From Branchiostoma floridae (Eukaryota; Chordata; Leptocardii; Amphioxiformes; Branchiostomatidae), in contig NC_049989.1 of the NCBI RefSeq assembly GCF_000003815.2, forward strand, positions 15,142,058 through 15,206,057: a DNA stretch of 64,000 nucleotides, given 5' to 3'. The notes below the pieces were generated by a model. That model did not search any database. It was given only the letters and a program-made list of their open reading frames with translations, and was not told where the DNA came from. This document shows, one piece after another, positions 6,694-64,000 of the stretch (the first letter of the stretch is position 1; each line of letters starts with the position of its first letter). Both the position numbers and the translations under genes were made by a program.

Positions 6694-7124
6694 TTAAAGC
6701 TAAGACTTATATAAAAATTATGTCAATGGGAAAAATCCAAAGGACAAAGATTACCGCAAAGGCCAGGTTGCTATGCAAAGGTGGACGATAATACAGGTTT
6801 GACTCTACAACCTTCTAGTACAAATGTAGTAGCCATGTTAGCAGTGTTATGTTAACCTTTGCAGTATTGAAATTTGATCACCCATTTCATCATTGCAGCT
6901 GCGGAGTGTAGATGCCAATTGGATACTGGGTCGCCCATGGTAACAGCAAAAAAAATTCTTACTTAGCAAGCGCTGTCGTCACATTCAGCGGCCTCAAAAA
7001 AAATCAAACCCATCGCTATCAGGTGCTGTTGCATCAGCATTCTTGCCTTAGAGTCATCCACAGATAGGGAATATCACCCCTACAGTACCTTCCACAGTGA
7101 CTGCAGACGACCTGAATCAGATCC
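6694..7124. other. 5' flank of GPCR copy 2
   Basis: No gene. From about 6869 it is collinear with the 5' flank of the first receptor, so it probably carries the duplicated promoter and 5' UTR. Confidence 0.45.
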
Positions 7125-23800: not shown

Positions 23801-26800
23801 TAATATATAATAACTGAAAGGCAACTACTGGTACCTCCACAAAATGAATGTCAAATGTTTGCTTTTTGCTTTTTTTTGTTCAGGAGAATCTGACATTATA
23901 GATGAAGCTATGCACTTCTTCAAGGCCAATGTTTTCTTCAAGAACTACGAGATAAAGGTGAGTACAGCTGTCAGTCAATTCTGTACTGTTATTAACTGTA
24001 CATTCACTTACTAAATGCATTTTTGTTTTTTGAGTAATGTAATGCAAGGCAACACATTTTCATCATAAATGTTGCAAAAATAAAACCACTATGAAAATTT
24101 CAATACTCACAATGCATTTATGAATGATCGCAATTTTTTTCCAGAGTGAAGCAGACAGGACGTTGATATACGTGACCCTGTACATCTCCGAATGTCTGAA
24201 GAAGCTTCAAAAGGTGAGTAGGGTCTGTTTGGGCCTTAGTGACATTGTCTATCAAAGATTGACTTTATGTGTACATCAAAAACTAGTGTACTTGTAGTAT
24301 GACATTGAAACTATTTGTGTTTGTTGCATGTAGAATTATGTACTACTAGTAAATTACAATCATATTTGCAGTGAAATTTTTCTCTCTTTGAATATCATTC
24401 TTTGATTCTTCTTGCACTTTCCAAAGGTGTACAGAAAAAAGGAGTTGTATATACAGCGTGCAAAATACCCACTTGCACACTTGCACATTGCAACCACTTT
24501 TTGCTTGGTGCAACTTACTTCTAGACTCAGGTTGCACAGGGTGCAACTTAGATTTTGAGCCTCAGAACTCGGTTTTGTTGTCAATTTACTTCGAAGAAAT
24601 AAATGGACCGAGGCAGCTCTGTTTCATATCAGCCAAACATGTATGTATCATTTGTACCTTTTTTTCAGAAATTAGTGAATTGTAGGTGGTGCAACTTGAA
24701 ATTCAGTTGTGCAACCTAGTCTTTGCCCTGGGTTGCACCCTGTGCAACCTGGCTTAGAAAAGTATTTTGTACACTGATATACATGATGTGGAAAAGTTAA
24801 AGACATGATTGTATGTTGTAACTGCCCTTTGCAGTGCACATCTAAGAACAATGGACAGAAGGAGATGCACACGTTAGCGCTCGGCAAGTGGCCCATCCCT
24901 GGAGAGGCTGGCTTCCCCCTTAATGCCCTGTATGGTAAACCTAAGGACAGGCAGGAAGAGGGTATGTAGTCTTTTATTTGCTTTGTTTATTTTACATAAC
25001 ATAAGGCCACACCAATTTAATTTCTTGGTTCACGGATTTTTTCATAAAAAATATGGAGCGAGAGGGCGAAATAAAAATGAAAATTGTAAAATAGTTGGGG
25101 TAAAGGTGACGGCTAATCCAAAACATAAAGAAAAAAAGCTTTCAGCTTGAAAAAAGTACAAAAACACCATTACTGTACATTAACAGCACCTGTACTCACA
25201 CTTTAAGGAGCTTATAATATAAAGGCCAATTTGCTACACCAGAAAGTTGGTGAATGGTTTCATTAATGGTGAAAATTTGCTGAGTGGTAATTTTTATTTT
25301 TATTTTTTTTTCCAAAAAAATAGGAGCGAGCGAATCCGTGAACCAAGAAATTGAATTGGTGTGGCCTAAGCAGTAAACTGCCTTTTAGCCTTGCTTTTAG
25401 GTACATGTATAACACACCAGTTTTATAGAATATATATATATGGCCTCCTTGGGTCAGTATTGACCATGGTAAAATCCTAATTGATATCAGCCCTGCAGCG
25501 TTGACTATAGCTAAACAGTCCTATACGAGAATGACAGTCTCTGCCACATAGGGCACATCTGTAAGCTGACTCAGGTCTGTTGCAGAGTTCTTATATATAG
25601 AGAGTAGGTAGGTTTTAAACTAGGTACAAGCTTAAGCTGCATAAGACCGGACTGTAAGGTTTGATCCACGCACATTGGGAAGGACCCGTACTCTTTTCAA
25701 TAAATGTGATGGGTGCTTTGACGTGGTCGCGGTTTGGCTGCCCTCAAACATGGGACTGACTTTATGTACAATCTGACAGGATGTTTTTGTAAACAGATGT
25801 TGCTGCCCAAAGCGCCACAAGGCACGATAGGGGAACGTTTCACATTGTCTTTTTAGCTTTTCAGCCTCTTAGTATGAACTCGGACTGTAAGTAAGCTAGC
25901 TTGATAAAGGTGACATGATTATTCGTTTTTGCTTGGACATTCATGTTACTTAGAAAGCGAAAACTTATTGTCCCCTTTTCAATCTGGATTCAGAAAAAAC
26001 TTTAGAACAAGCGATAATGTTTTTGTGCTTAAAACACTGATTGACCAACAAATCTCCAAACCTGCAGGTAAACTATATGCTTGTTTCGTTGATTTCCGCA
26101 AGGCGTTTGATTCTGTGTGGCGGAACGGTTTATTTTACAAACTTTTGTCATCAGGTATAGGGGGGAACTTCTTCAAAATCATTAAATCAATGTACTCTAA
26201 CGTAAGATATTGCGTAAAAACACCAAATGGCCTATCACCATACTTTCAATCATCATGTGGGGTGCGACAAGGGTGTAACCTTAGCCCCCTCCTCTTTAAT
26301 TTATATCTAAACGATCTTCCTAACATATTAAATTCACGAGCGTCTGATCCTCTCATTCTACAAGACACACCCATCAACAGCTTATTCTGGGCAGATGATC
26401 TCGTTCTTCTATCAAAATCTGAATCAGGCCTGAAGGAATGTCTAAGAACACTTGACCAATTTTGCTCCATTTGGAAATTATCAATAAATGAAAAGAAAAC
26501 TAAAGTAATGATATTCACAAAAAATGGACGGACAAACAGTCAACATTCTACATATAAAATACAAGGCCGCACAATTGATATTACTACTTCTTATACATAC
26601 CTAGGAGTCGATCTAACCCCCTCAGGTTCATTTAACCGCGCCAACAAACAGCTAAGATTGAAAGCTCTTCGGGCTTCCTTTAAACTAAAATCACTTTTAT
26701 CCACAAATTTCAATCCATCCATTCGACTAGCACTTGACCTATTCAACAGTTGTATCAAACCAATTCTACTATACTGTGGTGAAGTTCTTGGAACTAACGC

Positions 26801-28832
26801 TCAAGGTAGAGACCTTATATTCCATGGTATAGAAGAAAGTCAAAGTGAGAATACCAGAGATTCAATAGCTAGGATCCTCAGTACGACACTGGGATCAGAA
26901 ATTCACATCCTCAGAGCTTCTCGTATCGGCAAAACATCAGACACTTCCACACCGCGCCCTGTCCTTCTTCGATTTAAAAAATACAGTGACAAATTAAACA
27001 TTATCTATCAATCAAACATACTTAACAGACAAAACGTAACACTACAGCAACCAACAGTATCCTATGAAATTGCGGATTTAGAGTTTGTACTATTGAACTA
27101 TTGCAAAATTACTCTCGGCGTTCCCAAAAGCTCTATTAACGCCGCGGTCAGGGGTGAGCTTGGAGTTTTTCCTCTATACATTGATTCACAAACACAGTTG
27201 ATAAAATATTGGCTTAGATTACATAGTCTCCCAAATGACAGACTCGTAAAGAAAGCTTACAATACTTCTGTTCAGCTACAACAAGACTGGGCTGTCCATG
27301 TACAAGACATGTTATGTAGACACGGCTTCCAAACTGTTTGGCTCAACCCTGCGGTGAATGCCAATCAGTTTGGAAATTTATTCAAAAACCGCCTGATAGA
27401 CACATTTCTCTCTGGCTGGAGACAAGAAATAAGAAGTCTAAGCAAACTTAGTACTTATTGCAGAATCAAAAAAGATTTCTGTTTTGAAAATTACCTTTCA
27501 ACTGTTCAAAACAAATCCTTTAGAAATATCATTACGAAACTAAGAATTAGTGCCCACTCCCTACAAATCGAAAAGGGTAGACATCACAACACACCAGCCA
27601 GTGAGAGACTGTGTCCAACGTGCCATGATAATATTGAAAATGAATCCCACTTTATAATGGATTGTCCAACTTATGATAGAGAGAGACAAAAAATGTTACA
27701 GTCTATTAAATGCAAATCTGATACTATGTTACCACCTACCAAGACAGAAATGTTCAATATGTTACTATCATGTCCTGCTGATATATCTGCCTATGTCGGT
27801 CAATTTATATATAACTCATTTAAAAAACGTGACAATATTATACTATCATGAACCAGCACATAATGATAGCCTGATTGTAAATATTATATACCATGTGTAA
27901 AATAGATTAGTCTCTTAGATTTTTAGATACTAGTAACTCATGTAGTGTTCTGTTCTGTATGTATTGTATGTTCAAGTTGCCAAACACTGTATCCTTTACA
28001 GTTGTCGTGCAATAAAGTTCTTCTTCTTCTTCTTCTGTGCTCAGCTTATAAGACTGTTGTCGGGTCTTCATATGTTTTGCATCTTTCTTGATCTCATGTT
28101 GGTGCTTCCCTCCCCTCCCCAGATTCCATGCAGCAGTACCTCCTCCAGTTACGACAGGAGACCGGCATGAGGCTGTGTGAGAAGGTGTTCGACCCCAACA
28201 CTGACCAGCCTAGTAAGGTGAGCCATACCCTGAATTAGAAATCACCTGTTAATACTGCTGCATACCTATACACTGGACCAGAACTGGACTTGTAAAACAT
28301 TTAGGTAAAGTTAAAAGAAACCTATTTGAATAAGCTGCAAAAAAGAACCAGGAACCAGATTCAATTTGTATACAGATCAATTTGTATATGGTCTCTCTTG
28401 TATGAGGCATTATAATCCACAGACTTACTATAGACCATTTTGTCCAGAGGCATACCACAGTTAAAAATACCAACCTGTCACAGCTGTCATATTTTTCAAT
28501 ATTCCTTGCTCTCTAGCCTGGCTCAGTAGTGGAAGCTTTCACAGTTAGGGTATTCAAAGCCAGGTAGACCATCTGCTCATTGTAACTCACACACACATAC
28601 ATACACACATGCAGGCATATACATACATTCACACACACGTGTGCGCACGCATACGTACGCACAAGCAAACACACACACATGCACACACACACGCATGCAC
28701 ACAGCATTATTGAACGTAACCTTTAAGCTTGAGACCTGTAAGTTAACCCTGTCTGTTTGTTTTCCTCAGTGGTGGATGTGTTTTGTCAAGAGGAAGTTCA
28801 TGGACAAGAGTCTGTCTGCACCGGGCATGTAA
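20865..28832 (+). CDS. ARPC3: Actin-related protein 2/3 complex subunit 3 (7 exons)
   Basis: Exons: 20865-20870 (only ATG CCG), 23426-23519, 23884-23957, 24145-24213, 24835-24961, 28123-28217 and 28770-28832. All borders are GT/AG and the total is 176 codons including the stop, giving 175 residues against 178 in human. The product begins MPAYHSSL and contains [50 protein letters not shown] and [16 protein letters not shown], and ends near [11 protein letters not shown], all typical of p21-Arc. It is a structural subunit of the seven-protein Arp2/3 complex that nucleates branched actin filaments in the cytoplasm. The two-codon first exon and 2.5-kb first intron are notable. Intron 5 carries a LINE. 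GPN3 lies head to head upstream. Confidence 0.95.
21636..21998. mobile_element. hAT-type MITE with GGTGCACCCA words, complete copy
   Basis: Same family as 2625-4032, with ends CAGGGCTCGAAAT and ATTTCGAGCCCTG and subterminal GGTGCACCCA repeats at both ends. 363 bases, no insertion. No clear 8-bp duplication in the flanks. Lies in ARPC3 intron 1. Confidence 0.7.
24463..24765. repeat. GTGCAAC-word inverted repeats, hAT-MITE relative
   Basis: Repeated GTGCAAC and GTTGCAC words at about 24470-24550 and 24685-24760, and a GTGCAACTTAGATTTTGAGCC segment that recalls the right end of the element at 21636-21998. Boundaries unclear. Lies in ARPC3 intron 4. Confidence 0.35.
25005..25366. mobile_element. 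PIF/Harbinger-type MITE with TAA duplication
   Basis: Terminal inverted repeats GGCCACACCAATTTAATTTC and its near-exact complement at the right end are flanked by TAA at 25002-25004 and 25367-25369. A 3-bp TAA/TTA duplication with GG-rich ends is the hallmark of PIF/Harbinger elements. No transposase. It lies 43 bases after ARPC3 exon 5. Confidence 0.8.
25900..28036 (+). mobile_element. Non-LTR retrotransposon (LINE), 5'-truncated, with RT frame
   Basis: An open frame of 640 codons (25929-27851, no certain start) encodes reverse transcriptase: [32 protein letters not shown] and [12 protein letters not shown], the active-site block with F/W-A-D-D. The C-terminus has a [18 protein letters not shown] motif, like the Cys-His motif of many LINE proteins. 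The usual upstream endonuclease domain is absent, so the copy is 5'-truncated. The 3' end has AATAAAG and a (TTC)n tail at about 28018-28036. It lies in ARPC3 intron 5, in sense with the gene. The unbroken frame points to a fairly recent insertion. The left boundary is approximate. Confidence 0.85.
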
Positions 28833-32348: not shown

Positions 32349-34692
32349 AACTTCAGGTAGTCAATGACAGGACTGACATAGCATTGCGCCGTGTCTAGTG
32401 ACCAACCAGAGTGATTTTACATTTCTAAGGGATTGGGGTTGAATCTTGTTCAGAACATATACCAAGGCGTTGTAGACACGAGGGCCTACATTTGAAAGCT
32501 GAATAACACCTTTAGCAAGAAAGATGTTCTCTACCTGTGTGAGACAACCACTCTCGTAGAAGCACAACAGTGCGATCTCCATGTACACCTGGTAGCGAAA
32601 GAAAGCCAACTCAGAAGGACTCAAAAACTCTCCTTCATTCCCCGTAGCCCGACATTTAGAATAAAGATAGTGGTCTATGTGTCTGTGATGGAGCCTATGA
32701 CTGAAGGTATCAGACAAATGTTCTACCTCCTCTTGATAGAGTTTGACAAGAAGGGCCAATATAACATCCGCTTCGCGTCCTAACTTCGCACAGGCAAAAA
32801 TGACCATGTTTTCCAAGTCACGCACATTTTTAGCCGTTCTTAGGTACGTGTTCAGAATGGCATTTCCTGCTGTCTCGTCTTGAAGCCTTTTTGCGAAATA
32901 CAATCCTGCAAAATACTCCTACATCGTTTTGTGGGAGAAGGAAAACTGGTCAGAAGGGTTGAGTCTGGAGGGACTTTCTTGTCTGTGAAGGATCCCTAAA
33001 AACACAAGCTCTTGCAAACTGTCTTCATCACAATACTTGGCAACGTCGTCTTTGCTATATACAAGCCTATTTTCTATCAATCCATTGAAAGCAAGAGCCC
33101 CGGCACACAACAACGCGTCTCTGATGCTGTCAGGAATACCTTGGCAGAATGAAAATATGAAAAACAATGTTGTTCCTAACGCAATGTCGCCTTATGGTGA
33201 AGGAAACTAGCTCATCATAAAGGGGAAAGATTCGACCTCCAAACACCAAATCCTGCTTCTCTTCCCACATCATGCAGGTCAACAAAAGCAGTATTGGTGT
33301 TGCCAGAATGCCTGTGGGGATTAGAGAGGAGTCCAATTTGCTGACTAAGGCTGCTGCCTTGGCCTCGTCTCCCGTGAAGAACCTGTGGACGTAAGTGCGG
33401 ATGTTGTCCTGACTGAAGCCCGTGATCTCCACCTGTGTGTCCGGACACATCAGACTCTGCAGCTGAGGGGCGTGGGAAGGTCTGGTGGTCACCAACAGGC
33501 AACAGTCTCGGAGAACCTTACCTGAAAGGAAGGGAGGATTTGCACTAAGGCTCGCCAATGTTGTTTAGACCAATGGTTTAATGTCAGCCCTGACATATGG
33601 GGAGGACATCCATTCATATCATGTTGCAATGTATGTGTTAACGCCAGTTCACCTTTATCAACAGGGTAACCTATATCCGTTGATCTAAAAAAACCCAGAG
33701 TATTTGGGGATATCAAGTTGAATTGGAATATTTTATATTGCAGTTTAGAGCCACCGTCCGTCAAGTTTATATCCCTAAATACCCTTGTTTAAAAAAAACG
33801 GCAACGATTGTCACCCAGATAAAGTGAACTAGAATTAGACGGTCCGTTTGAAATGGAGTGCCTACCAGTCAGAAGTTTAGTGACGTCATGCCCTTCATGC
33901 CTAGCCCACTCGTCGAAGCCGTCGAGAATGATCAAGACTCGGTCATTCCCCTTCAAGTACGTTTCTAAGTCCGACTCTTGGAACGGCACATCTTCTGGTA
34001 GGAGTTGGTCGAAGATGCACTCCGTGAGGGACTGGGACTCACCAACCTTCCGCAGTGCGATCGGGAAAACCAGATCATACTTTTTCAGAACGGGAGAACG
34101 CCCCTCGGCCCAGTCAAAAGCGAGTTTAGAAACTTCGGTCGTCTTCCCTATCCCTGCGTTACCTTCGATCAAAATGCGCCGGGGCTGGGGACAATCGGGC
34201 CTGGCAGTCAAAGCGTCGACAGTAGAGGGGAGGGCGCGACGTTCAATGTTTCCTCCTTGTTGTGTTCGCGTCACGAGGTCTACAGTCGTGAAGATGTCCT
34301 CAATCTTCATGGTGAAAGTTTCATTCCACGCTAGTGGGTGAAGGTTGCTCAGTCTTGTCTTGAAATACGACTTAAGTGAATCTTGACATTGAGCCAGGGG
34401 AAAATTTTCAGGGGCACTGTCAATGTTGGGACCTGAAAAAAAGTCAAACAAATTGACGACAGGTTATACATAGCGTGTACTAGGTCATTTCGCTACATTG
34501 TCAGTTTGATACAGTACGTTTGGCTACATGGCAAATCGTTTCATTACATGGTAGGAGTCGTTTGGCTGCATGGTAGAAGTAGTTTTGCTAAATTTGGATG
34601 TTATCTAGTGTCTAAATAGTGTAATGACATTTCTTCCTTGCGGAGTGAACACAGGGGGTTGTCTTTGATGGCGGAAATATTTAGTCGTCAAG

Positions 34693-34819: not shown

Positions 34820-35483
34820 CCATCAGTTTACCCTTCTTATCAAGCACTCACCTGTGTTAGGTTCATCGGATGCTCCGTGGAAGGAAGTGATGTTGACGGT
34901 GGAATGGGGTCCGATGTTGATGACCTTGTTGCCTTGGCCGCTCACTTGACTAGGGTTTGTAATTTGGGTCACTGTATTTTCTGTACAAAACACAGGAAGG
35001 CAACTGTTTGTACAAAATAAAATGAATTTTTCTCATGTATACGTGGAAGGAAAAATATGGTTGTGAAATACAAATGTCTGGAATATCATTTCTTCTACCT
35101 GTTTCTGAGAACGCCACCACCTCTCCGTCATTGTAGCATTCACGCCCACCGTCCAAGCCTTGAGTGTCTCTCCCCTGATCCAGCGCTAGTAAGGCCATGT
35201 CGTAGGATTCCTGATCATGATGAAGATCGACGTCAGTGGCCTGACACGTACCGACCCCTTCCTCATCCTCATTGTCAAGGCTAGGAGCGATGTTTGTGGG
35301 TTCGTCATTGTCCAATACGTTGCTTCTCATGTCAACATTTGCCCCGTGTTCTCTACTAGTTTCTTCCGAACGCGATCTCGTTTGGTGTGGCGCCCGACTT
35401 TGCCCTTCGTCTTGCCTAAATTCGCCTCCGGTCAAACTCTGGTCGGACCTCAGTTTTGCTGCCTCTGACGCTTTCTGGTCCAT

Positions 35484-39159: not shown

Positions 39160-42100
39160 TCATGACTTTAAGCCCCCGAGAACTTCCCAAACTTTCCTTT
39201 CGTCCTCCTGACCTGTCACATTGGCTCTCCACTCAAACACTTCCATCTTTGAGCAGTACTGCACTACTGCAGTAGCTGTGTGTTAAATTGAAAACAACAG
39301 TATTAGAACCTTAGCCAAGAATGTTATGACTTATGTTGTCTGGACTGTTCATGTTTGTGTGTGTCTATCCGTCTGCTAACATAACTCTAGGATGCCTGGA
39401 TGGATTGTCTTGACACTTGGGATGATACTTGGAAACCGTCAATGTAAATTTTGATTTCAAAACATACATAATGAGCAAACATCGCAAGAAGAAAAAGGAT
39501 ATTTGTTATTCAACATGTGATTTTACATGTGATATGAATTATGTAAGTAAGAGGCTACTTTTTATATTATCTGCATTCCAATGATATAAAATTACTAATT
39601 GGGAGGGTTATTAAGTAGTTTTGATCAGTACACAACAAGTTTCATCAATTTTATACCAAGCAAGTGGTACATGAATAAGGAATTATAGAAAAGTATCGAT
39701 GTAAAACAATGAGGTGAATAAGAACATGCCCTTACCTATCTGTAGAACATCCTCCAGGCTAAGTTTGCACTCATATACGTTCAGGACTTTGAGGTTCCGT
39801 AAGGAGCACGGCAGTTCTGAGATTTCCTTTCCACAACCTGCTAGTTTGTTACCAAAGAGGTTCAACCATTCAAGGTCCACCAACATCTTCAAGTAAGGTA
39901 ATAATACAAGTAGATCTGAGCAGGAAAGATTGTTCAAACACAACACAAGCTTCCTCAAACTTGTGAGGTAAGGCAGCTGTTGTGCCAGGCGGGCACAAGG
40001 TCCTGTATTGGGGTCATGACCTCCAAGACAAGCACGATAAAGGTCCAACTCAGACAAATTCATCATCCCCAGGTAGTCAATGACAGGACTGACAAAGCAT
40101 TCCGTGGTACCCATCAACCTGAGGGATTTTATACTTCTAAGGGATCGAGGTGGAATGTTCTTCAGAACATGTTCCAAGGCGTTGTAAACATGAGGGCCTA
40201 CATTTGAAAAGTGAATAACACCTTTGGTTGGAAAGATGTTCTCTACCTGCGAGAGACAACCACTCTCGTAGAAGCACAACAATGCGATCTCCATGTATGT
40301 CTGGAGGTGAAAGAAAGCTAACTTAGAAGGACTAAAAAACTCTCCTTCATTCCCTGCAATCCGACATTTAGAATATAGAAAATACTCCATGTAGTGTGGA
40401 TACCCACCACTGGAGGTATCAGACAAATGTTCTACCTCCTCTTGGTGGAGTTTGACAAGGTGAGCCAATATAACATCTGCTTCAAGCCCTAACTTCGCAC
40501 AAGCAAACATGATGACGTTTTCCAAGTCACGCACACTTTGAGCCGTTGTCAGGTATGTGTTCAGAATGGACTTTTCTGTTGTCTCGTCCTGAAGCCTTTT
40601 TGCGAAATACAACCCTGCGAAATACTCCTGCATCGTCTTGTGGGAGAAGGAAAACTGGTCAGAAGGGTTGAGTCTGGAGGGACTTTCTTGCCTGTGAAAA
40701 ATCCCCAACAACACAAGCTCCTGCAAACTGTCTTCACGACAATACTTGGCAACGTCTTCTTTGCTATATACTAGCCTATTCTCCAACAAGCCATTGAAAG
40801 CAAGAGCCCCGGCACACAATAACGCATCTCTGATGTTGTCAGGAATGCCTTGGTTTGAACCAATGTTGTTCCTAACGCAATGTCGCCTTATGGTGAAGGA
40901 AACTAGCTCATCATAAAGGGGAAAGATTCGACCTCCAAACAACAAATCCTGCTTCTCTTCCCACATCATGCAGGTCAACAAAAGCAGTATTGGTGTTGCC
41001 AGAATGCCTGTGGGGATTAGGGAGGAGTCCATTTTGCTGACTAAGGCAGCTGCCTTGGCCTCGTCTCCCGTGAAGAACCTGTGGACGTAAGTGCGGATGT
41101 TGTCCTGACTGAAGCCCGTGATCTCCACCTGTGTGTCCGGACACATCAGACTCTGCAGCTGAGGGGTGTGGGAAGGTCTGGTGGTCACCAACAGGCAACA
41201 TTCACGGAGAACCTTACCTGAAAGGGCAGGATTCACACTTTACACTACCTTTCAGCAATGTTCTTGTTTAGAACATCGATTCAACGTTAGTCCTTACATA
41301 AGGCCAGACACCCATTCATATCATGTTGTACAGTATAAAAATGGATATAGGTTACCAATCAAATAAAGGTGAACTAGCGTTAGACGGTCATTATGAAATG
41401 GAGTGCCTACCAGTCAGAAGTTTGGTGACGTCATGCCCTTCATGTATGACCCACTCGTCGAAGCCGTCGAGAATGATCAAGACTCGGCCATTCCCCTTCA
41501 AGTACGTTTCCAAGTCCGACTCTTGGAACGGCACATCTTCTGGTAGGAGTTGGTCGAAGATGCACTCTGTGAGGGACTGCGACTCGCCAACCTTCCGCAG
41601 TGCGATCGGGAAAACCAGATCATACTTTTCCAGAACGGGAGAACGGCCCTCGGCCCAGTCAAAAGCTAGTTTAGAAACTTCGGTCGTCTTCCCTATCCCT
41701 GCGTTACCTTCGATCAAAATGCGCCGGGGCTGGGGACAATCGGGCCTGGCAGTCAAAGCGTCGACAGTAGAGGGGAGGGCGCGCCGTTCAATGTTTCCTC
41801 CCTGTTGTGTTCGCGACACGAGGTCTACAGTCGTGAAGATGTCCTCAATCTTCATGGTGAAAGTTTCATTCCACGCTAGTGGGTGAAGGTAGCTCAGTCT
41901 TGTCTTGAAATACGACTTAAGGGAATCTTGACATTGAGCCAGGGGAAAATCTTCAGGGGGACTGTCAATGTTGGGAACTGAAAAAAGTCAAACAAATTGA
42001 CGACAGGTTATACATTGCATGTACTAGGTCGACCGGTCCTGCATTGTCAGTTCAATACAGTACGTTTGGCTACATGGCACGTCGTTGTATTTTATGGTAG

Positions 42101-43017
42101 GAGTCGATTGGCTACATGGTAAAAGTAGTTTAGCTAAATTTGGATGTTTTTATTGTCTACATAGTGCAATGACTTTCCTCACACAGAGAACACAGAGGGA
42201 ACATCTTAAGTCGCCAAAGTCATCCCTAGGGTTCTGGCGGGCATAGTGTTAGGCTCTGCTCTTTCTACTTTACATTGATCACCTCAATACCTGACTACTA
42301 GTAGATTCACATGTTCGACTATTTGCTGACGGTTGCTTGGTTTATCGAACCATAGGCAAGCCTTTTATCAAGCGCTCACCTGTGCTAGCATCATCGGATG
42401 TTCCGTGGAAGATATTGACGGTGGAATTGGGTCCGATGTTGATGACCTTGTTGCCTTGGCCGCTCACTTGACTAGGGTTTGTAATTTGTGTCACTGCATT
42501 TTCTGTACAAAACACAAAAACGCAGTTGTACTTTTAGTCATGTGCTTCACGTCTATCTACAGTGTTCTAAAGTACATGCTGTATACGTGGAAGGACAAAA
42601 GGGTCATGAAATATAAATGTCTGGAGTATAACTTCTCCTACCTGTTTCTGAGAACGCCACCACGTCTCCGTCATTGTAGCATTCACGCCCGCCGTCCAAG
42701 ACTTGAGTATCTCTTCCCTGATCCAGCGCTAGTAAGGCCATGTCGTAGGATTCCTGATCATGATGAAGATCGACGTCAGTGCCCTGACACGTACCAACCC
42801 CTTCCTCATCCTCATTGTCAAGGTTAGGAGCGGTGTTTGTAGGTTCGTCACTGTCCAAGACGTTGCTCCTCACATCAAAATTTCTCCCATGTTCTCTAGT
42901 TTCTTCAGAACACGACATCGTTTGCTGTGGCGGACTTTGCCCTTCGTCTTCCCTTCTTTGTTCTCCAATCAAACTTCGGGACCTCGGTTTTGCTGCCTTT
43001 GACGCTTCCTGATCCAT
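39160..43017 (-). CDS. NLR-B: NACHT-LRR protein with RHIM-like exon
   Basis: Exons 43017-42642, 42502-42380, 41977-41411, 41217-39736 and 39275-39160, all GT/AG, open through 887 codons. Residues 1-125: charged, low-complexity head beginning MDQEASKAAK, with NEDEEGVGT and a conserved ECYNDGDVVAFSETG end; no known domain. Residues 126-166 (exon 2): GQGNKVINIGPNSTVNI, where INIGPNSTV (146-154) resembles the RHIM core [IV]Q[IVL]GxxNxM. NACHT: Walker A GNAGIGKTT (about 257-265), Walker B VLIILDGFDEW (about 332-342), sensor-like CLLVTTRP near 362. A winged-helix/helical region ends in FSFSHKTMQEYFAGLYF. LRRs lie near 720-849 and exon 5 is a conserved tail. It is probably a cytoplasmic ATP-driven innate immune sensor that oligomerises. 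I start at MDQ because the upstream stretch looks like an intron acceptor in all copies. Ligand and partners are unknown. Confidence 0.85.
42218..42347 (+). pseudogene. LINE reverse transcriptase fossil in NLR-B intron 2
   Basis: Decayed counterpart of the fragment at 34693-34819, at the same intron position and orientation relative to the gene. Matching bases run through the stretch CACATGTTCGACTATTTGCT. Confidence 0.6.
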
Positions 43018-45442: not shown

Positions 45443-47090
45443 TATTTCTATTTCTATTTCTATGCTGTACTGGGCAAAGCCCCTTTTAGGGGCATCCCGC
45501 CCAGGTGAGAAAAACGAGGTGCACGGCATTAGTGCGACCGGTGGTGGTGGTGGTGCTCCCAAAAAGAAAAAATAGTGAGTGCATCAAAAAGTAACAACAC
45601 AACAAAAAGGTGAGGTGATGGCCGCACTAATGGTATGTATCTACATGTGGGGGACGGGGAGGCCCATGTGCTGGGCCAGCCCCGTCTTGAAGGTTGTCAG
45701 TGATGGAGATGTGACAAGCTGTGGTGGAAGGCTGTTCCATTGTGGTATTGTTCTGGGGAAATAACTAAATCTGTAGGTGTCTGTTCTGCATAAGAATGTA
45801 TAGTATCTATGTTGATGGCCTCTGGTGGGATTCTTGTTCCTTACAATATAATCATGGATGGGGATGGCTACCAGGCCGTTGATGGCCTTGTATAGTAGAG
45901 TCAAGCGTGCCTGTTGTCTCCTTTCAGTGAGAGTGGGCCACCCCAAGTTGGTCTTGAGTTGGGATACACTGGCAGTGGTTCTGTAATCATTGGATACATA
46001 CCTTGCTGCTCTGTTCTGTACTGATTCAATCTTATCTTCTAAAACATTGGACTGTGCGTATTGACGTCTACATGGATCCCAGACTGTAGAAGCGTATTCC
46101 AGTTTTGGTCTTACTAAGCTAGTGTATGCCTTTGATCTCACCTGTCTATTAGCCCTCCTTATATTCCTCTTGAGGAATCCTAGTGTGCTATTTGCCTTGG
46201 CTGTGATGTTGTTGATGTGAGCTGTCCATTTCAGATCATGTGAGAGGATGATCCCTAGGTAAGGGTGCTGGGTAGTCACTTCTAGAGGTTCTGCAAACAT
46301 TGTATACATGTAGAGTGATCTATGTTTGGACTTATGCACATGAATGATACAACACTTTTTTACATTGAACCTGAGCTGCCATTTATCTGACCAAGCGCAT
46401 AGTCTGTCTAGATCTTTTTGGAGGTCTTCTTGGTCTTCTTCTGAATCTATAGGTCGGTAGATAAGACAGTCGTCTGCGAAAAACCGTAGTTGTGAGGAGA
46501 TATCTTGGACGATGTCATTAATGTAGATTAAAAAAAGAAGGGGACCCAGAACTGTACCCTGAGGTACGCCCGATTTTACTCTGGTTGGCGTGGATAACTC
46601 TCCGTCTACCATTACACTTTGATTCCTATCTATTAACCATGATTTAATCCATCTGAGATTATACCCCCGAATACCGTAATAGTGAAGTTTGTTGATTAGT
46701 CGATTATAAGGGACACTATCAAAAGCTTTGGAGAAGTCTAATATAGCTAGGTCCACTTGTTTACCTTTATCAAACCATGCTGTCAAGTCATGCAGAGTGC
46801 ATATCAACTGAGATTCACATGAATGCCGAGCCATAAAGCCATGTTGGGTGGGGAGGAGTATGTTCTGACTATCAAGGTGTTTCATGGTGGCTGAATATAA
46901 GATGTGCTCAAGTAGTTTACAACAAACGCTGGTAAGAGAGACTGGCCTATAGTTAGCTGGCTCTCCTCTGTCACCTTTCTTGTAAATTGGGTGTACGTAG
47001 GCTCCCCGCCAATCTTCAGGGACATTCTGGGCAATCTGTCGAGACACTCTGGGCAATAACTTACTGTGCATTCGTACTCAATATGATAAC
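45443..47090 (-). mobile_element. CR1/Jockey-type LINE, 5'-truncated, with RT frame
   Basis: An open frame of 476 codons (47071-45641) encodes YKKGDRGEPANYRPVSLTSV, LDFSKAFDSVPY, SGVPQGTVLGPLLFLIYIND and FFADDCLIYR, the fingers and active site of a CR1/Jockey-group reverse transcriptase. C-terminal sequence follows (RRQQARLTLLYKAINGLV). The endonuclease and ORF1 are missing. On the minus strand the 3' end has a (TAGAAA)n tail at about 45443-45463. It abuts the SINE at 45251-45442. The frame is unbroken, suggesting a young insertion. Confidence 0.85.
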
Positions 47091-50416: not shown

Positions 50417-53400
50417 ATGGATCAGAAAGCGTCGAAGGCAGCAAAACCGGGGTCCCCGAGTGTGACCGAAGGACAAAGAAGGGAAGACGAAAGGCAAAGT
50501 CCGCCGCACCATTCGGAACAAACTAGGGAACACGGAGCAAATGTTGACGTGAGTAACAACGTCTCGGACAATGGCAAACCTACAAACATCGCACCTAGCC
50601 TTGGCAATGAGGATGAGGAAGGGGTCGGTACGTGTAAGGCCACTGACGTCGATCTTCCTCATGATCAGGAATCCTACGACATGGCCTTACTAGCGCTGGA
50701 TCAGGGGAGAGACACTCATGATCAAGTCTTGGACGGCGGACATGAATGCTACAATGACGGAGACGTGGTGGCGTTCTCAGAAACAGGTAGAAGAATTTTA
50801 GAAATTGTATTCCAGACATTTATATTTCAAGACCATATTTTGTCTTTCCTCATATACATTAGAAAAAGTCATGATCATTTTTTTTGTACAAACAGTTGCC
50901 TTTCTGTGCTTTGTACAGAAAATGCAGTGACCCAAATCACAAACTCTGGTCAAGTGAGCGGTCAAGGCAACAAGGTGATCAACATTGGGCCCCATTCCAC
51001 CGTCACTATCTTCGATGGAACATCCGATGAACCTTACACAGGTGAGTGCTTGATAAAAAGGCTTACTAATGGCTAGATAAATCAAGCAATCCTCAGCAAA
51101 TAGTCGAACATGTGAATTTACGGAGTTGGTGAGGTCATTAATGTACAGTTAAAAGAGCAGAGGGTCTAATATTGTACCCTGTTGAACCCTGCGGGCGACC
51201 TTGACGGCTTCATATGTTCCGCCATCAAAGGCAACCCACTGTGTTCTCTCCGCAAGGAAGGAATGTCATTACACTATTTGGAGAAATGATATCCAAATTT
51301 AGCGAAACTACTTCTACCATTTAGCCAAAAAACTCCTACCATGTAGTGAAACAATTTGCCATGTAACCAAATCTACGAATCGAATTAAATCGAACTGACA
51401 ATGTAGCGAAACGACCTAGTACCCGCAATGTAAAACCAATCTTCAATTTGTTTGACTGTTTTCCAGTTCCCAACGTTGACAGTCCCTCAGAAGATTTTCC
51501 CCTGGCTCAATGTCAAGATTCACTTAAGTCGTATTTCAAGGCAAGACTGAGTTACCTTCAACCACTAGCGTGGAATGAAGAGGTTGAGGTTAAGATTGAA
51601 GACATCTTCACGACTGTAGACCTCGTGACGCGAACACAGCAGGGAGGACACATTGAACGGCGCGCCCTCCCCTCTACTGCCGACGCCTTGACTGCCAGGC
51701 CCGATTGTCCCCAGCCCCGGCGCATTTTGATCGAAGGTAACGCAGGGATAGGGAAGACGACCGAAGTTTCCAAACTCGCTTTTGACTGGGCCGAGGGCCG
51801 CTCTCCGATTCTGGAAAAGTATGATCTGGTTTTCCCGATCGCTCTACGGAAGGTTGGCGAGTCCCAGTCCCTCACAGACTGTATCTTCGACCAACTCCTG
51901 CCAGAAGACGTGCCGTTCCAAGAGTCGGACCTAGAAACGTACTTGAAGGGGAATGACCGAGTCTTGATCATTCTCGACGGCTTCGACGAGTGGGCTAGGC
52001 ATGAAGGGCATGACGTCACCAAACTTCTGACTGGTAAGCGATCCATTTCATACACAACATGAATGGGTGCCCTGCATGCCCCTATCTGAGGACTAACATT
52101 GAACAACTGTTCTAAACAGGAACTAGAAAGACCGACATTTGCTTGAGAGCAAATTCAGCATCGAGGTCATTGGCCCCTGTGGCCATTGGAAAATGACCCA
52201 AAAATCATTTTGAAGTGGTTCCTGCCAAAAATCATACATGGGTCATTTGAATAAATATCTAGTGCACCCCTGTAGCAAAATTTAGGCCATTGGTTGTAAA
52301 CCAGTGAACAGGAGCCAAATGTGGCCTTTCTTTGTAAAATGAATGGACTTTTCTAGCACACCCCATGTAAAATTGCAAAATAGACCAGTCCAAAGATACA
52401 CCCACTGAAAGAGTATATACTGGCATACAGTTCTGCAAGTGAGAAAGCTGAACATGGAGTCAACGACCTTGAGGTAATTGATCCTGTGGCCATCGGAAAA
52501 ATGACCCAAAATATCCCCCCCCCCAAATCGTTTTGAAGTGGTTTATGCCAGAAATAATACATGTGTACATGAGTCATTTGAATGAATATGTAGTGCAGCC
52601 CTGTACCAAAATTTAGGTCATTTGGTTGCAACCAGTCTACAGGAGCCAAAAGTGTCCTTTTTTGTCAAAAAATTGACCACAAAATCGGAAAATTATTATT
52701 AGTTGTACTGTATGCCAAAAGTGTTGAATCCATGTGCGCACATATAAAGTACACTTCTATGACAGATTTCAGCTCAATGGTTGTAAAACCAGGGTACAGG
52801 AGCCAAAAATGTCCTTTTTTGTCAAAAAATGGCCAAAAGCATTTTGTTGTACTGTATTCCAAAACTGTTATTGACTTCATGTGGGCATATGATCAAGGCA
52901 CCTCTGTACCAAATTTCAGGTCATTCTGATGTAAATCCATGGTACAAGGGCCAAAATATACACATTTGGTCTAAAAATTGCCAAAAAAAACTTCAATCTA
53001 AAACTAAAATCAATTTAGGGGCAGATATGAAAAAAAATGAAAAAAAAAACTCTGGGGGTATTTCCAAATTTCAAGTCATTCGGTACAGGAACGACGGAGA
53101 TACCGTGTTTTGAAGATTTGACAGGAGAAAGAAAGAAAGAAGAAGAAGAAACATTACGAATTATTATATAGCCAGGCGCCGCGGACCAATCAGAAGGCCC
53201 CGTTCCACGTTGGTTATGACGCGGTAACACATAGATTCCGGCCAGGCAGGTGTGTATCCTCCTTCTGATTGGTTAGAATGAATCGACACCGGCACCGATG
53301 TCGATGCAAATCGACACCGGTGCCGGTGTCGATTCATTCTGACCAACCAGAATGAGCGATACACACAAGATATGCAGTCTTTGGCCGATGATAAGGAGCG

Positions 53401-56068
53401 AAATACATGCCAAACCAGAGGGAATAAGTACAGACTGCAGGGGGGCTCTTTCTGTTAACATTGATAATAAGTTTTGTTGTTCCATAAAGCCAAAGACTGC
53501 AATGTTTTGAATATTTTCTGTGGAAATTTTGGTTTCAAACTGCAATCTGTAATCTCCTTACAAATGTATGTACCAAGGAACAAATGTGAACTTTCAGAAA
53601 TTCGACAAAGGAATTCACACGTATAGGATCTATGCGTCATACAGGAGTTTGCAAGTTCGGGTAGGCTATGTGATAATAACGTTAATGACCCGCCTGTTCC
53701 TCGGTGTAAATGGTGTCATAACGCCTGGTCCTTTGCTATAGCCACCTCATAAAACCACCTCGTTCGCATCGCTCACTCGGTGGTTTTATTCGGTGATTAT
53801 AGCAAAGGACCAGGCGTTATGACACCATATACACCTCGGGGCGGGTCATTAACCCTTACAATATATTTCACCATAGCTATGGTATGGCTGCAATATAATT
53901 ACAAAGACAATATGTTTAACCATAGCTATGGTATGGCTGAAATATGAATACAAAATATCAACATTGGTCAGACAATTTTGAATTCTTTCCTTCTTTTTAG
54001 GTAAGATTTTCTGTGACTGTTGCCTGTTGGTGACCACCAGACCTTCCCACACCCCTCAGCTGCAGAGTCTAATGCGCGCATATATGCGTCCAGATACACA
54101 GGTGGAGATCACGGGCTTCAGTCAGGACAACATCCGCACTTACGTCCGCAAATTTTTCAAGGGAGACAAGGAAAAGGCAGCAACCTTAGTCAGCAAAATG
54201 GACTCCTCTCTAATCCCCACAGGCATTCTGGCAACACCAATACTGCTTTTGTTGACCTGCATGATGTGGGAAGAGAAGCAGGATTTGGTGTTTGGAGGTC
54301 GAATCTTTCCCCTTTATGATGAGCTAGTTTCCTTCACCATAAGGCGACATTGCGTTAGGAACAACATTGGTTCAAACCAAGGTATTCCTGACAACATCAA
54401 AGACGCACTCTTGTGTGCCGGGGCTCTTGCTTTCAATGGCTTGTTGCAGAATAATCTAGTATATAACAAAGAAGATGCGGTTAAGTATTGTGGTGAAGAC
54501 AGTTTGCAGGAGCTTGTGTTGTTGGGGATCCTTCACAGACAAGAAAGTCCCTCCAGACTCAACCCTTCTGACCAGTTTTCCTTCTCCCACAAAACGATGC
54601 AGGAGTATTTCGCAGGGTTGCATTTCGCAAAAAGGCTTCAGGACGAGACAACACTAAAGCCAACACTAAACACGTACCTAAAAACGGCTCAAAGTGTGCG
54701 GGACTTAGAAAACATGATTATTTTTGCATGTGCGAGGTTAGGACCTGAAGCAGATGTAATGTTGGCTCATCTTGTCAAAATCTACCATGAGGACGTAGAA
54801 TATTCTAGTGGCTTTACAAAACTTTTGTACTTATCCCGTTCTGAGTATTCTAAATGTCGGGTTTCGGGGAATGAAGAAGGGTTTTTGAGTCCTACTGATT
54901 TCGCTTACATTCGCTACCAGACATACATGGAGATCGCACTGTTGTGTTTCTATGAGAGTGGTTGTCTCTCACGTTTCGAAAACATCATGCTAGCCAAAGG
55001 TAATATTCAGTTTTCAAATGTAGGTCCTCGTGTCTACAACGCCCTGGAACATGTTCTGAACAAGATTCCACCCCAATCCCTCAGAAATGTAAAATCGCTC
55101 TGCTTGTTCAACACCACGCAATGCTTTGTCAGTCCTGTCATTGGCTACCTGAAGATGATGAGTTTGTCTGAGTTGAACCTTAATAGTGCTTGTCTTGGAG
55201 GTCATGACCCCAATACAGGACCATGTGCCCGCCTGGCACAACAGCTGCCTTACCTAACAACTTTGAGGAGGCTTGAGTTGTCTTTGAACAATCTTCTCTG
55301 CTCACACCTACTTGTGTTATTACCTTCCTTGAAGATGTTGGTGGACCTTGAAAAGTTGGATCTCTCTATTAATAAATTAGCAGGTTGTGGAAAGGAAATC
55401 TCAGAACTGCCACGCTTCTTACGGAACCTCGAAGTCCTGGACGTGTCTTTCTGCAAACTTAGTCTGGAGGATGTTCTTCAAATAGGTAAAAGCATGATCT
55501 TATCCACCTCATTGTTTTACATCAAGACTTTTCTATAATTCCTTATTCATGTACCACTTGCTTGGTATAAATTTGATGAAACTTGTTGTGTACTGATCAA
55601 AACTACTTAATAACCCTCCCAATTAGTAATTTTATATCATTATATCATTATAGCAAATAATATAAAAAGTAGTCTCTTACTTACATAATTCATATCACAT
55701 GTAAAATCACATGTTGAATAACAAATATCCTTTTTCTTCTTGCGATGTTTGCTCATAAAGTATGTTTTGAAATCAAAATTTACATTGACGGTTTCCAAGT
55801 ATCATCCCAAGTATCAAGACAATCCATCCAAGCCTCCTAGAGTTATGTGGACGGATAGACACACATAAACATGAACAGTCCAGACAACATAAGTCATAAC
55901 ATTCTTGGCTTATGTTGAAGGTTCTAATACTGTTGTTTTCAATTTAACACAGCCACTGCGGTGGTGCAGTACTGCCCAAAGATGGAAGACTTTGAGTGGA
56001 GAGGCAATATGACAGTTCAGAAGGACAAAAGGAAAGTTCGGGAAGTTCTTAGGGGCTTAAAGTCATGA
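50417..56068 (+). CDS. NLR-C: NACHT-LRR protein with RHIM-like exon
   Basis: Exons 50417-50786, 50919-51041, 51467-52033, 54001-55485 and 55953-56068, all GT/AG, open through 886 codons. An in-frame ATG at 50363 would add 18 residues, but the stretch TTTTACCAACAG before the matching ATG is acceptor-like in all four copies. Exon 1 is a charged head (about 123 residues) with ECYNDGDVVAFSETG. Exon 2 holds GQGNKVINIGPHSTVTI, a RHIM-like Gly/Asn motif. Exon 3 has Walker A GNAGIGKTT and Walker B VLIILDGFDEW. Exon 4 has CLLVTTRP, the winged-helix end FSFSHKTMQEYFAGLHF and LRRs with LSELNLNSACLGGHDP. Exon 5 is the 38-residue tail ending REVLRGLKS. It is likely a cytoplasmic immune receptor. Intron 3 is long (about 2 kb) because of inserted repeats. 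Divergent to NLR-B. Confidence 0.88.
51083..51208 (-). pseudogene. LINE reverse transcriptase fossil in NLR-C intron 2
   Basis: Counterpart of 34693-34819, again antisense to the NLR gene and at the same intron position. Readable matches are GAGGTCATTAATGTACA and CAGAGGGTCTAATATTGTAC. Confidence 0.6.
52150..53160. repeat. Degenerate repeat array in NLR-C intron 3
   Basis: Four to five diverged units with AAATTTAGGTCAT or TTTCAGGTCATT, then GGTTGTAAACCAG, then ACAGGAGCCAAA and a TTTGTCAAAAAAT tract. They start near 52160, 52470, 52755, 52895 and 53055. The array ends in a GAAAGAAAGAAGAAGAAG tail. It was inserted in this copy only; the matching intron of A, B and D is under 400 bases. No coding capacity. 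Confidence 0.6.
53252..53364. repeat. About 53-bp hairpin in NLR-C intron 3
   Basis: Near-perfect arms 53252-53304 and 53311-53364 with a 6-base loop TGCAAA. The inner part is GAATCGACACCGGCACCG and its complement. It is probably the core of a small palindromic MITE. Confidence 0.75.
53686..53848. mobile_element. TTAA-flanked MITE in NLR-C intron 3
   Basis: Ends TGACCCGCC and GGCGGGTCA begin arms of about 55 bases (through GGTGTCATAACGCCTGGTCC and its complement). The element is flanked by TTAA at 53682-53685 and 53849-53852. A TTAA duplication points to piggyBac or Kolobok type. No transposase. Confidence 0.75.
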
Positions 56069-61540: not shown

Positions 61541-61640
61541 NNNNNNNNNNNNNNNNNNNNNNNNNNNNNNNNNNNNNNNNNNNNNNNNNNNNNNNNNNNN
61601 NNNNNNNNNNNNNNNNNNNNNNNNNNNNNNNNNNNNNNNN
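61541..61640. other. Assembly gap (100 N)
   Basis: Exactly 100 unknown bases, the usual placeholder for a gap of unknown size. The sequence after it does not continue the NLR-C/NLR-D collinear block at once, so material may be missing. Confidence 0.99.
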
Positions 61641-62008: not shown

Positions 62009-64000
62009 ATGGATCAAAAAGCGGCAAAGGCAACAAAAACGAGATCCCAGGGTTTGTCCGAAGGACAAAGAAGGGAAGACGAAATACACAGTCCGCCACA
62101 CTATTCGGAAGGAACTAGACAAGATCCAAATGTTGACGTGAGAGGCAACGTCTTGGACAGTGACGAACCTACAAACACCGCTCCTAACCTTGGCAATGAG
62201 GATGAGGAAGGGGTCGGTACGTGTAAGGCCACTGACGTCGATCTTCATCATGATCAGGCATCCTACGACATGGCCTTACTAGCGCTGGATCAGGGGAGAG
62301 ACACTCAAGTCTTGGACGGCGGGCAGGAATGCTACAATGACGGAGATGTGGTGGCGTTCTCAGAAACAGGTAGAAGAAATTATATTCCAGACATATATAT
62401 TTTCTGACCATATTTCCTTCCTCATATACATTACAAAAACTTTATTTTTTTGCACAAACAATTGCCTTCATGTGCTTTATATAGAAAATGCAGTGACACA
62501 AATTACAAACCCAAGTCAAGTGAGCGGTCAAGGCAACAAGGTCATCAACATCGGGCCCCATTCAACCGTCAATATCTTCCACGGAACACCCGATGAGCCT
62601 AGCACAGGTGAGCGCTTAATAAAAAGGCTCACTGATGGCTCAATAAATCAAGCAATCGTAAGCAAATAGTCAAACATGTGTATCTACGGAGTCAGGTCAT
62701 TAATGTACAGTAGAAAGTGCAGAGGGTCTAAAATTGTACCTTTCGGAACTCCAGGGGTGACCTTGACGGCTTAATATTTCCGCCATCAAATACAACCTTC
62801 TGTGTTCACTCCGCAAGGAAGAAATGTCATTACACTACTTAGACACTAGATAACATCCAAATTTAGCGAAAGTACTTCTACCATGTAGCCAAACGTACTG
62901 TATTGTAAAGGATTGAACTGACAATGTAGCGAAACTACTTAGGACCCCTGCAACGTATAACCCATCGTCAATTTCTCTGAATTTCTTTTTCAGTGACCAA
63001 CGTTGGAAGTCCCTCAGAAGATTTTCCCCTCGCCCAATGTCAAGATTCACTTAAGTCGTACTTCAAGACAAGACTGAGCTACCTTCACCCACTAGCGTGG
63101 AATGAAACTTTCACCATGAAGATTGAGGACATCTTCACGACTGTAGACCTCGTGACGCGAACACAACAGGGAGGACACATTGAACGGCGCGCCCTCCCCT
63201 CTACTGTCGACGCCTTAACTGCCAGGCCCGATTGTCCCCAGCCCCGGCGCATTTTGATCGAAGGTAACGCAGGGATAGGGAAGACAACCGAAGTTTCCAA
63301 ACTCGCTTTTGACTGGGCCGAGGGCAGGTCTCTGATTCTGGAAAAGTATGATCTAGTTTTCCCAATCGCGCTGCGGAAGGTTGATGAGTCCCAGTCCCTC
63401 ACAGAGTGCATCTTCGACCAACTCCTACCAGAAGACGTGCCGTTTCAGGAGTCGGACTTAGAAACGTACTTGAAGGGGAATGACCGAGTCTTGATCATTC
63501 TCGACGGCTTCGACGAGTGGGCCAGACTTAAAGGGCATGACGTCACCAAACTTCTGACTGGTAGGCACTTCATTTCAAATATAGTTCAACATAACATGAA
63601 TGGGTGTCCTGGCCCTATGTCAGGGCTGACATTGAACCGATTCTCTAAACAGGAAATACAAAAAATCAACATTGGCGAGCCTTAGTGCAAATCCTCCCTT
63701 CTTTTCAGGTAAGGTTCTCCGTGACTGTTGCCTGTTGGTGACCACCAGACCTTCCCACACCCCTCAGCTGCAGAGTCTGATGTGTCCGGACACACAGGTG
63801 GAGATCACGGGCTTCAGTCAGGACAACATCCGCACTTACGTCCACAGGTTCTTCACGGGAGACGAGGCCAAGGCAGCAGCCTTAGTCAGCAAAATGGACT
63901 CCTCCCTAATCCCCACAGGCATTCTGGCAACACCAATGCTGCTTTTGTTGACCTGCATGATGTGGGAAGAAAAGCAGGATTTGGTGTTTGGAGGTCGAAT
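62009..64000 (+). CDS. NLR-D: NACHT-LRR protein with RHIM-like exon, cut by window end
   Basis: Exons 62009-62369, 62485-62607, 62994-63560 and 63709 to beyond the window. Starts MDQKAAKATK; an in-frame ATG at 61961 is an alternative. Exon 1 is the charged head ending in ECYNDGDVVAFSETG. Exon 2 gives GQGNKVINIGPHSTVNI, the RHIM-like motif. Exon 3, of exactly the same length (567 bases) as in the other three copies, has Walker A GNAGIGKTT and Walker B VLIILDGFDEW. Exon 4 starts GKVLRDCCLLVTTRPS and is open to the end of the window. No disruption is visible in the part present. The winged-helix, LRR and tail regions are outside the window, so whether the gene is intact cannot be judged. Confidence 0.85.
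62640..62765 (-). pseudogene. LINE reverse transcriptase fossil in NLR-D intron 2
   Basis: Counterpart of the remnants in the other three NLR genes: TCATTAATGTACAGTAGAAA and CAGAGGGTCTAAAATTGTAC, antisense to the gene at the same intron position. Confidence 0.6.

What the first reader, a model, noticed from the sequence alone, without database searches (positions are those of the whole stretch)
62485..62607. RHIM-like amyloid motif on its own exon in an NLR family
All four NLR loci have a 123-129 base second exon encoding a 41-43 residue Gly/Asn/Val-rich peptide: 62485-62607, 50919-51041, 42502-42380 and 34980-34852. The core INIG(P)(H/N)STV fits the RHIM pattern [IV]Q[IVL]GxxNxM with N for Q, S for N and V for M, and is preceded by a second turn-like unit, QVSGQGNKV. 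The core is unchanged or nearly so even in the pseudogene. RHIM proteins (RIPK1/3, ZBP1, TRIF), Drosophila cryptic-RHIM proteins and fungal HET-s-type NLRs use such motifs to template amyloid signalling. An animal NLR with such a motif just before NACHT would be a prion-like immune relay. The similarity is read by eye and remains a hypothesis.
Basis: partly seen in the sequence, partly recalled or inferred. Interest (0 to 1): 0.85.

Follow-up and report, generated by a model that had tools for sequence, protein, structure and literature searches.

The report
Shared beta-motif exon in animal NLRs
A short, selectively conserved two-turn motif on its own exon sits just before the switch domain of a family of animal immune receptors, and much the same motif occurs in other genes of the genome, so it may be a receptor-to-partner docking or amyloid-like switch; it is not the known RHIM motif.

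Summary
All four NLR genes have a separate second exon (123-129 bases, phase 1 at both ends) encoding the Gly/Asn/Val peptide. The genome has 11 such copies, and four diverged NLRs have a matching exon at the same place. The window copies are young duplicates, so their identity alone shows little, but codon counts show selection: pN/pS is 0.13 in the core, 0.71 in exon 1, 0.22 in exon 3 (NACHT). RHIM fails: Pfam RHIM does not match, and the RHIM tetrad is absent from 13 of 13 motif types. The motif is two G-x-x-N/S-like units, nine residues apart in 12 of 13 types. Candidate partners exist in sequence: nine places with no listed NACHT nearby carry it, and an HMM built from those nine alone ranks 11 NLR exons first in the DNA fetched, though it misses the C9 type and ranks gene C among chance. 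I think it is a homotypic beta-motif standing in for a death-fold domain, working like fungal or bacterial amyloid signalling motifs. Assembly, pairing and amyloid state are inferred, not shown.

The parts
62009..62369 (+). NLR gene D, exon 1: hydrophilic, low-complexity N-terminal region
   Evidence: splice borders and translation
62485..62607 (+). NLR gene D, exon 2: the two-unit G..N/G..S motif (the finding)
62994..63560 (+). NLR gene D, exon 3: pre-NACHT and first part of NACHT
   Evidence: NACHT by Pfam on the homologous gene B; genome NACHT match
63709..64000 (+). NLR gene D, exon 4: rest of NACHT, cut by the window end
50417..50786 (+). NLR gene C, exon 1
50919..51041 (+). NLR gene C, exon 2: motif
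51467..52033 (+). NLR gene C, exon 3: NACHT, first part
54001..55535 (+). NLR gene C, exon 4: NACHT end to leucine-rich region (open frame; true 3' border not determined)
42642..43017 (-). NLR gene B, exon 1
42380..42502 (-). NLR gene B, exon 2: motif
41411..41977 (-). NLR gene B, exon 3: NACHT, first part
39686..41217 (-). NLR gene B, exon 4: NACHT end to leucine-rich region (open frame; true 3' border not determined). NACHT E 3e-30 on the spliced protein
35099..35483 (-). NLR gene A, exon 1
34852..34980 (-). NLR gene A, exon 2: motif with a two-residue insertion after the core
33866..34432 (-). NLR gene A, exon 3: NACHT, first part
33133..33521 (-). NLR gene A, exon 4, interrupted: the frame stops early compared with B and C; a similar frame resumes at 32918-32364

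Best explanation
Exon 2 is a short homotypic interaction motif: two beta-turn units nine residues apart, rough consensus V-x-G-x-x-N-x-x-V-x-x-G-x-x-S-x-V-x-I, placed just before NACHT in an NLR family for which no Death or DED exon is listed in front. On activation the NACHT domains would bring several copies together. The copies would stack as beta strands (an amyloid-like or beta-solenoid seed) and recruit or template the same motif in non-NLR partner proteins, as fungal and bacterial NLR amyloid motifs do. Shown: the exon, its constraint, its presence in diverged NLRs, and a like motif in nine places with no listed NACHT nearby. Inferred: that those places are partner proteins, that the motif forms beta assemblies, that NLR and partner motifs pair, and that this signals.
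For: (1) Same exon position and phase in the window-type genes examined, two C9 NLRs and two C8 NLRs, borders of the last four read by eye, while exon 1 differs between types by eye. (2) Core pN/pS 0.13 (bootstrap 0.02-0.32) against 0.71 (0.50-0.98) in exon 1; the difference is <=0 in 1 of 2000 resamples. (3) A genome search with the C8b motif found a place outside NLRs (C1:19124407, 425-aa open frame, E 0.50). A search with that motif found 8 further places with no listed NACHT nearby (E 5.9e-6 to 0.70) and, in return, 7 NLR exons (E 0.60-3.6). (4) An HMM from those nine motifs alone puts NLR exon-2 frames (26 rows, 11 distinct places: both C8 types and 9 of 11 window-type copies) at ranks 1-26 of the six-frame ORFs of all DNA fetched (E 2.6e-7 to 9.3e-3), with 0 of 5000 shuffles reaching the window, C8a or C8b peptides. 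(5) The two units are 9 residues apart in 12 of 13 types and 10 in one; the first has N in 13 of 13, the second S in 10 of 13 (C or A in the rest). (6) From my 35-place subset of the Death list, no match lies upstream of 11 of 11 window-type or of the 4 diverged NLRs, but one lies upstream of 19 of 81 NACHT places outside the window type (the 81 include those 4). (7) AlphaFold: two strands in the core, mean pLDDT 63.
Against: No fibril, structure or expression data. The domains upstream of the motif in the nine other places are unknown and no execution domain was found: the one open frame read in full (L072) has no Pfam match at E<=1, and a PDB sequence search gave only three hits at E 0.51-1.1. 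That the nine are not NLRs rests on a capped NACHT list (103 of 152 candidates scored). Two of the nine match weakly (E 0.11 and 0.70). They are not next to the window NLRs; the 64-kb window holds only the four NLR copies. The partner HMM gives the C9 type 2.7 bits (62 of 5000 shuffles) and ranks window gene C and copy 17 among chance matches (E 1.4 and 0.72). The motif is internal, after about 120 residues, whereas fungal motifs are at the N-terminal end of the receptor and C-terminal in the effector (PMC5485727, passages).
Confidence: 0.5

Rival explanations
1. Exon 2 is a soluble beta-hairpin or strand-swap element that helps NACHT oligomerise or holds it inactive, within one protein, without amyloid and without partners.
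For: Strands predicted at 15-23 and 26-33; purifying selection as strong as in exon 3; position directly before NACHT.
Against: A like motif in places without a listed NACHT.
Confidence: 0.25
2. The NLR and non-NLR motifs resemble each other by convergence: Gly/Asn/Ser/Thr/Val-rich beta-turn repeats arise often, and the nine other places carry an unrelated low-complexity segment.
For: Short, biased composition; only five invariant columns in the four NLR types; E-values of the cross matches in whole-genome search are 0.5-3.6; C9 and gene C not well matched by the partner HMM.
Against: Composition-preserving shuffles reach the scores in 0 of 5000 cases for three of four NLR types and in 0 of 10000 for the C1 motif (that candidate had been chosen with a related query, so not independent); the genome matches are reciprocal.
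Confidence: 0.15
3. Exon 2 is a true RHIM that binds RIPK, TRIF or ZBP1-like proteins.
For: INIG resembles the tetrad with N for Q; this genome has real RHIM proteins that could be partners.
Against: No Pfam RHIM match; tetrad absent in 13 of 13 types; RHIM HMM scores reached by 41 (window), 134 (C8a), 668 (C9) and 801 (C8b) of 5000 shuffles.
Confidence: 0.03
4. Exon 2 is a neutral linker whose sameness reflects only recent duplication.
For: Gene copies share stretches of 83-98% identity.
Against: Core pN/pS 0.13 at pS 0.22; pattern kept in diverged NLRs.
Confidence: 0.05

Closest known systems
Fungal NLR amyloid signalling motifs (HET-s type, sigma, PP) and bacterial BASS1-10 motifs
   Same: Short Gly/Asn-rich motif on the N-terminal side of an NLR without a recognised effector domain, with a like motif in other genes of the genome
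   Different: Animal NACHT receptor; motif internal on its own exon; other genes not adjacent; no HeLo, Bell or other effector domain identified; no profile comparison with these families could be run here
RHIM (Pfam PF12721; RIPK1, RIPK3, TRIF, ZBP1)
   Same: Short motif with G and N/S three residues on
   Different: No (V/I)-Q-(V/I/L/C)-G tetrad; no profile match; this genome's RHIMs are in other genes
Death-fold NLRs of lancelet (Death- or DED-NACHT)
   Same: Same receptor class in the same genome
   Different: A Death or DED match lies upstream of some others; none is listed in front of the 15 motif-bearing NLRs (capped lists, Death subset hand-picked)

Membership tests
RHIM | Core tetrad (V/I)-Q-(V/I/L/C)-G | tested here: not met
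   0 of 13 motif types; definition from passages of PMC9444067
RHIM | Match to Pfam PF12721 | tested here: not met
   0 matches at E<=10 for two exon-2 peptides and the spliced gene B protein; genome search lists 7 other places
NLR-associated amyloid signalling motif | Short motif on the N-terminal side of an NLR in place of an effector domain | tested here: met
   (no other N-terminal Pfam match in gene B); no Death or DED match listed upstream (lists capped, Death subset hand-picked)
NLR-associated amyloid signalling motif | Same motif in other, non-NLR proteins of the genome | tested here: met
   nine places without a listed NACHT nearby; one frame read in full and not an NLR by Pfam, the other eight read only around the motif
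NLR-associated amyloid signalling motif | Partner is a cell-death or effector protein, usually encoded next door | tested here: inconclusive
   no motif-bearing non-NLR neighbour in the window; upstream domains of the partners not found; no Death or DED match listed near them
NLR-associated amyloid signalling motif | Forms fibrils that seed the partner | not testable with these tools
   needs experiment
BASS families 1-10, fungal PP/HRAM/sigma | Match to the family profile | not tested
NACHT NLR | NACHT domain | tested here: met
   gene B, E 3e-30
NACHT NLR | Leucine-rich repeats | tested here: inconclusive
   gene B, LRR_4 E 1.7 and LRR_1 E 6.6 only, on an incomplete gene model

The most novel reading that the evidence does not exclude
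A chordate genome carries a family of RHIM-independent amyloid signalling motifs shared by a clade of NLRs and by separate partner proteins, so prion-like receptor-to-effector relays of the fungal and bacterial kind exist in animal NLRs, with the motif taking the place of the death fold.
Probability: 0.35. Interest if true: 0.9.

Novelty: new variant of a known kind. Interest (0 to 1): 0.72.

Why it matters
[quoted passage not shown] A constrained motif shared by animal NLRs and other genes makes that question directly testable with short peptides. It would also show an animal NLR group signalling without a death-fold domain.

Tried and rejected
RHIM membership: rejected by Pfam, by the tetrad and by an HMM of six of the genome's own RHIMs. 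A first run of that HMM test gave no scores and was repeated with other options.

Conservation among the four window copies as proof of function: set aside, because the copies are recent; replaced by codon counts and diverged genes. In those counts exon 1 used 8 of 11 copies (7, 16 and 17 left out: no start codon found near, and for 16 a stop in the stretch cut), exon 2 used 10 of 11 (17 left out, its exon 3 borders not found) and exon 3 used 9 of 11 (5 and 17 left out, border not found). The 20-codon core was delimited by me.

Homology between motif types from the motif alone: the window-only HMM finds C9 at E 1.2e-5 and 3e-4 but C8b at 1.4 and C8a at 14; the C8-only HMM finds the window type at 0.47 at best; the window+C9 HMM gives C8a E 25; the C9-only HMM finds the window type at 6.5e-5 at best. 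The C8 link therefore rests on exon position and on the partner HMM. The HMM is circular (it holds the rows it finds) and is not used as evidence of homology.

Known-family searches with exon 2: PDB sequences, NCBIfam, PADLOC and Pfam gave nothing. Plasmid tblastn with the C8b motif: no match. Partner upstream exons: about 3 kb before the C1:19124407 exon and 1.4 kb before C5:4295521 show no clear exon by eye. Relatives C8:16228712 (L068, which has a run of N) and C18:7095440 (L070) show no exon-2 motif in the 3.5 kb read. Death and DED lists show nothing near the motif genes, but the Death search scored 150 of 588 candidates and the DED search 150 of 172.

Unanswered: whether the nine other places share the C-terminal region of L072 (search not answered), and a search with the C8a motif (not completed).

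Full report
Setting. The window is G000:C11:15142058-15206057 of an unnamed 513-Mb genome in 431 contigs.

Observation. The four exons are real by splice sites, phase and frame. The gene plan is: exon 1, 120-128 residues, hydrophilic; exon 2, the motif; exons 3-4, NACHT (E 3e-30 in gene B) and a leucine-rich region (LRR matches only at E 1.7 and 6.6). No match on the N-terminal side of NACHT was listed for gene B by Pfam at E<=10.

Age and constraint. The copies share stretches of 83-98% identity. In whole-genome search the 41-residue peptide has 11 matches at E<=0.001, ten on contig C11 between 15.177 and 15.260 Mb and one on C10. Across copies pN/pS is 0.71 (bootstrap 0.50-0.98) in exon 1 (8 copies), 0.26 (0.15-0.44) in exon 2 (10 copies; core of 20 codons 0.13, 0.02-0.32; flanks 0.41, 0.21-0.89) and 0.22 (0.15-0.30) in exon 3 (9 copies). 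Flank minus core is <=0 in 50 of 2000 resamples, exon 1 minus core in 1 of 2000. So the core is held as firmly as NACHT while exon 1 drifts. Pairwise counts reuse the same changes, so the intervals are rough.

Diverged NLRs. A 29-residue query at E<=10 found a twelfth place, C9:14366785, E 1.13, which proved to be an NLR with a low-complexity first exon, a separate motif exon (TQQEGSNNRTYNIGPQSTVHIYEGPSS) and NACHT. Its neighbour at C9:14.373 Mb has the same plan. Reading upstream of NACHT places with a similar pre-NACHT sequence gave two more, C8:16.222 Mb (VQTTVTGDHNISVTTGDNSEVNIYQY) and C8:16.2125 Mb (QNQASVSGDGNISVIASGDGSVINISQN). Read by eye, the exon is phase 1 at both ends in these four. 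The four types share five invariant positions, G, N, G, S and I. Two other relatives read the same way (L068, L070) show no such motif.

Not RHIM. The RHIM tetrad as defined in PMC9444067 (passages) is absent from 13 of 13 motif types. Pfam RHIM does not match exon 2. The genome-wide RHIM search listed 7 places, two over the cut-off; three genes among them carry paired canonical motifs such as VQVGNHN and VQIGDNNIM (as whole frames two of the three pass the Pfam cut-off). An HMM of six of those RHIMs scores the window peptide 4.8 bits, reached by 41 of 5000 shuffles, and C8a, C8b and C9 2.9, 1.0 and -1.3 bits, reached by 134, 801 and 668 of 5000.

Partners. The C8b motif as query matched itself and one other place, C1:19124407, E 0.50, inside a 425-residue open frame with no Pfam match at E<=1. 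HMMs of NLR motifs score it 34.7 bits (all rows), 19.2 bits (window and C9 rows) and 23.6 bits (C8 rows), each reached by 0 of 10000 shuffles; the candidate had been chosen with a related query, so this is not an independent test. That motif as query listed 16 places at E<=10: itself; eight further places on C4, C5, C1 and C219 without a listed NACHT nearby (E 5.9e-6, 1.9e-5, 3.0e-4, 1.2e-3, 0.019, 0.045, 0.106, 0.70; the NACHT list scored 103 of 152 candidates); and seven NLR exons (E 0.60-3.6). The sequences show the same two units, for example VQGHGNITVNAGSGSTINI and VRGDGNITVTAGSGSTIII. An HMM from these nine alone, searched against six-frame ORFs of the window and of loci fetched, puts NLR exon-2 frames at ranks 1-26 (E 2.6e-7 to 9.3e-3). 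These 26 rows are 11 distinct places: both C8 types and 9 of the 11 window-type copies. Copies 17 and C (the window's 50919 exon) come lower, among chance matches (E 0.72 and 1.4), and the C9 type is not in the 45 rows printed. Against shuffles: C8a 31.4, C8b 21.9 and window gene D 19.5 bits, 0 of 5000 each (the best window shuffle reached 18.6); C9 2.7 bits, 62 of 5000; two RHIM stretches 3.4 and 0.5 bits, 108 and 271 of 5000, the third unscored. What these genes do is open: their upstream exons were not found, eight of the nine were read only around the motif, and the end of L072 looks helical to my eye but has no Pfam match.

Death fold. Of 81 NACHT places outside the window type (merged by hand; they include the four diverged motif-bearing NLRs), 19 have one of 35 hand-picked Death matches within 8 kb upstream on the same strand; 0 of 11 window-type and 0 of the four diverged motif-bearing NLRs do. 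By eye, DED matches lie within about 3 kb upstream of at least five other NLRs and of none of the motif genes. Both lists are capped, so absence is suggestive only.

Structure. AlphaFold2 on the single 40-residue peptide gives strands 15-23 and 26-33 with a turn at Pro-His, mean pLDDT 63 in the best of five models (52-58 in the others) and pTM 0.31: compatible with a beta-arch or hairpin, not evidence for amyloid.

Literature. Fungal and bacterial NLR amyloid relays are described in PMC7889193, PMC5485727, PMC8086366 and PMC12261475 (passages). Lancelet NLRs are described with CARD, DD or DED connectors (PMC2575513, passages). Searches combining amyloid, NLR, RHIM, amphioxus, NACHT and invertebrate terms listed no paper that by title or abstract start reports an amyloid motif in lancelet NLRs; listings were partial, and subscription papers and supplements were not searched.

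Verdict. A real, constrained motif shared by a group of NLRs and, with good but not complete sequence support, by other genes; RHIM no; amyloid-like relay plausible and testable.

Noticed in passing
L020 (G000:C148:156001-166000), L021 (C11:2595001-2605000), L023 (C135:200001-210000): Three genes with an exon holding two RHIM matches each, followed by an open frame weakly matching TRADD-like N (PF20694, E 2.5e-4 to 0.17, below cut-off) and, in L020, a weak Death match (E 0.004, below cut-off). A study of RIP kinases states that RHIM was identified only in vertebrate RIPKs (PMC9573974, passages); these look like RHIM adaptors in this genome.
   Followed up: partly
L067 and L036/L071, exon 1: The diverged motif-bearing NLRs start MGNLLSK and MGQGHSK/MGQGQSK followed by basic residues, which resembles an N-myristoylation signal (recalled pattern); the window genes start MDQ.
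   Followed up: no
window 33521-32364 (-): Gene A is interrupted in exon 4: the frame ends early against B and C and a similar frame resumes about 215 bases on.
   Followed up: no
window 285-1640 and 7116-8441 (+): Two similar open frames of rhodopsin-type GPCRs (7tm_1 E 7.5e-21 and 6.3e-22).
   Followed up: no
window 25914-27848 (+) and 45644-47077 (-): Two reverse-transcriptase frames of retroelements (RVT_1), the second between NLR genes B and C.
   Followed up: no
L070 (G000:C18:7092000-7095500): An NLR relative without exon-2 motif has a 602-residue upstream frame with tandem GTTEKSP repeats and coiled-coil-like sequence.
   Followed up: no
window 61541-61640: Assembly gap of 100 N just upstream of NLR gene D.
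   Followed up: no
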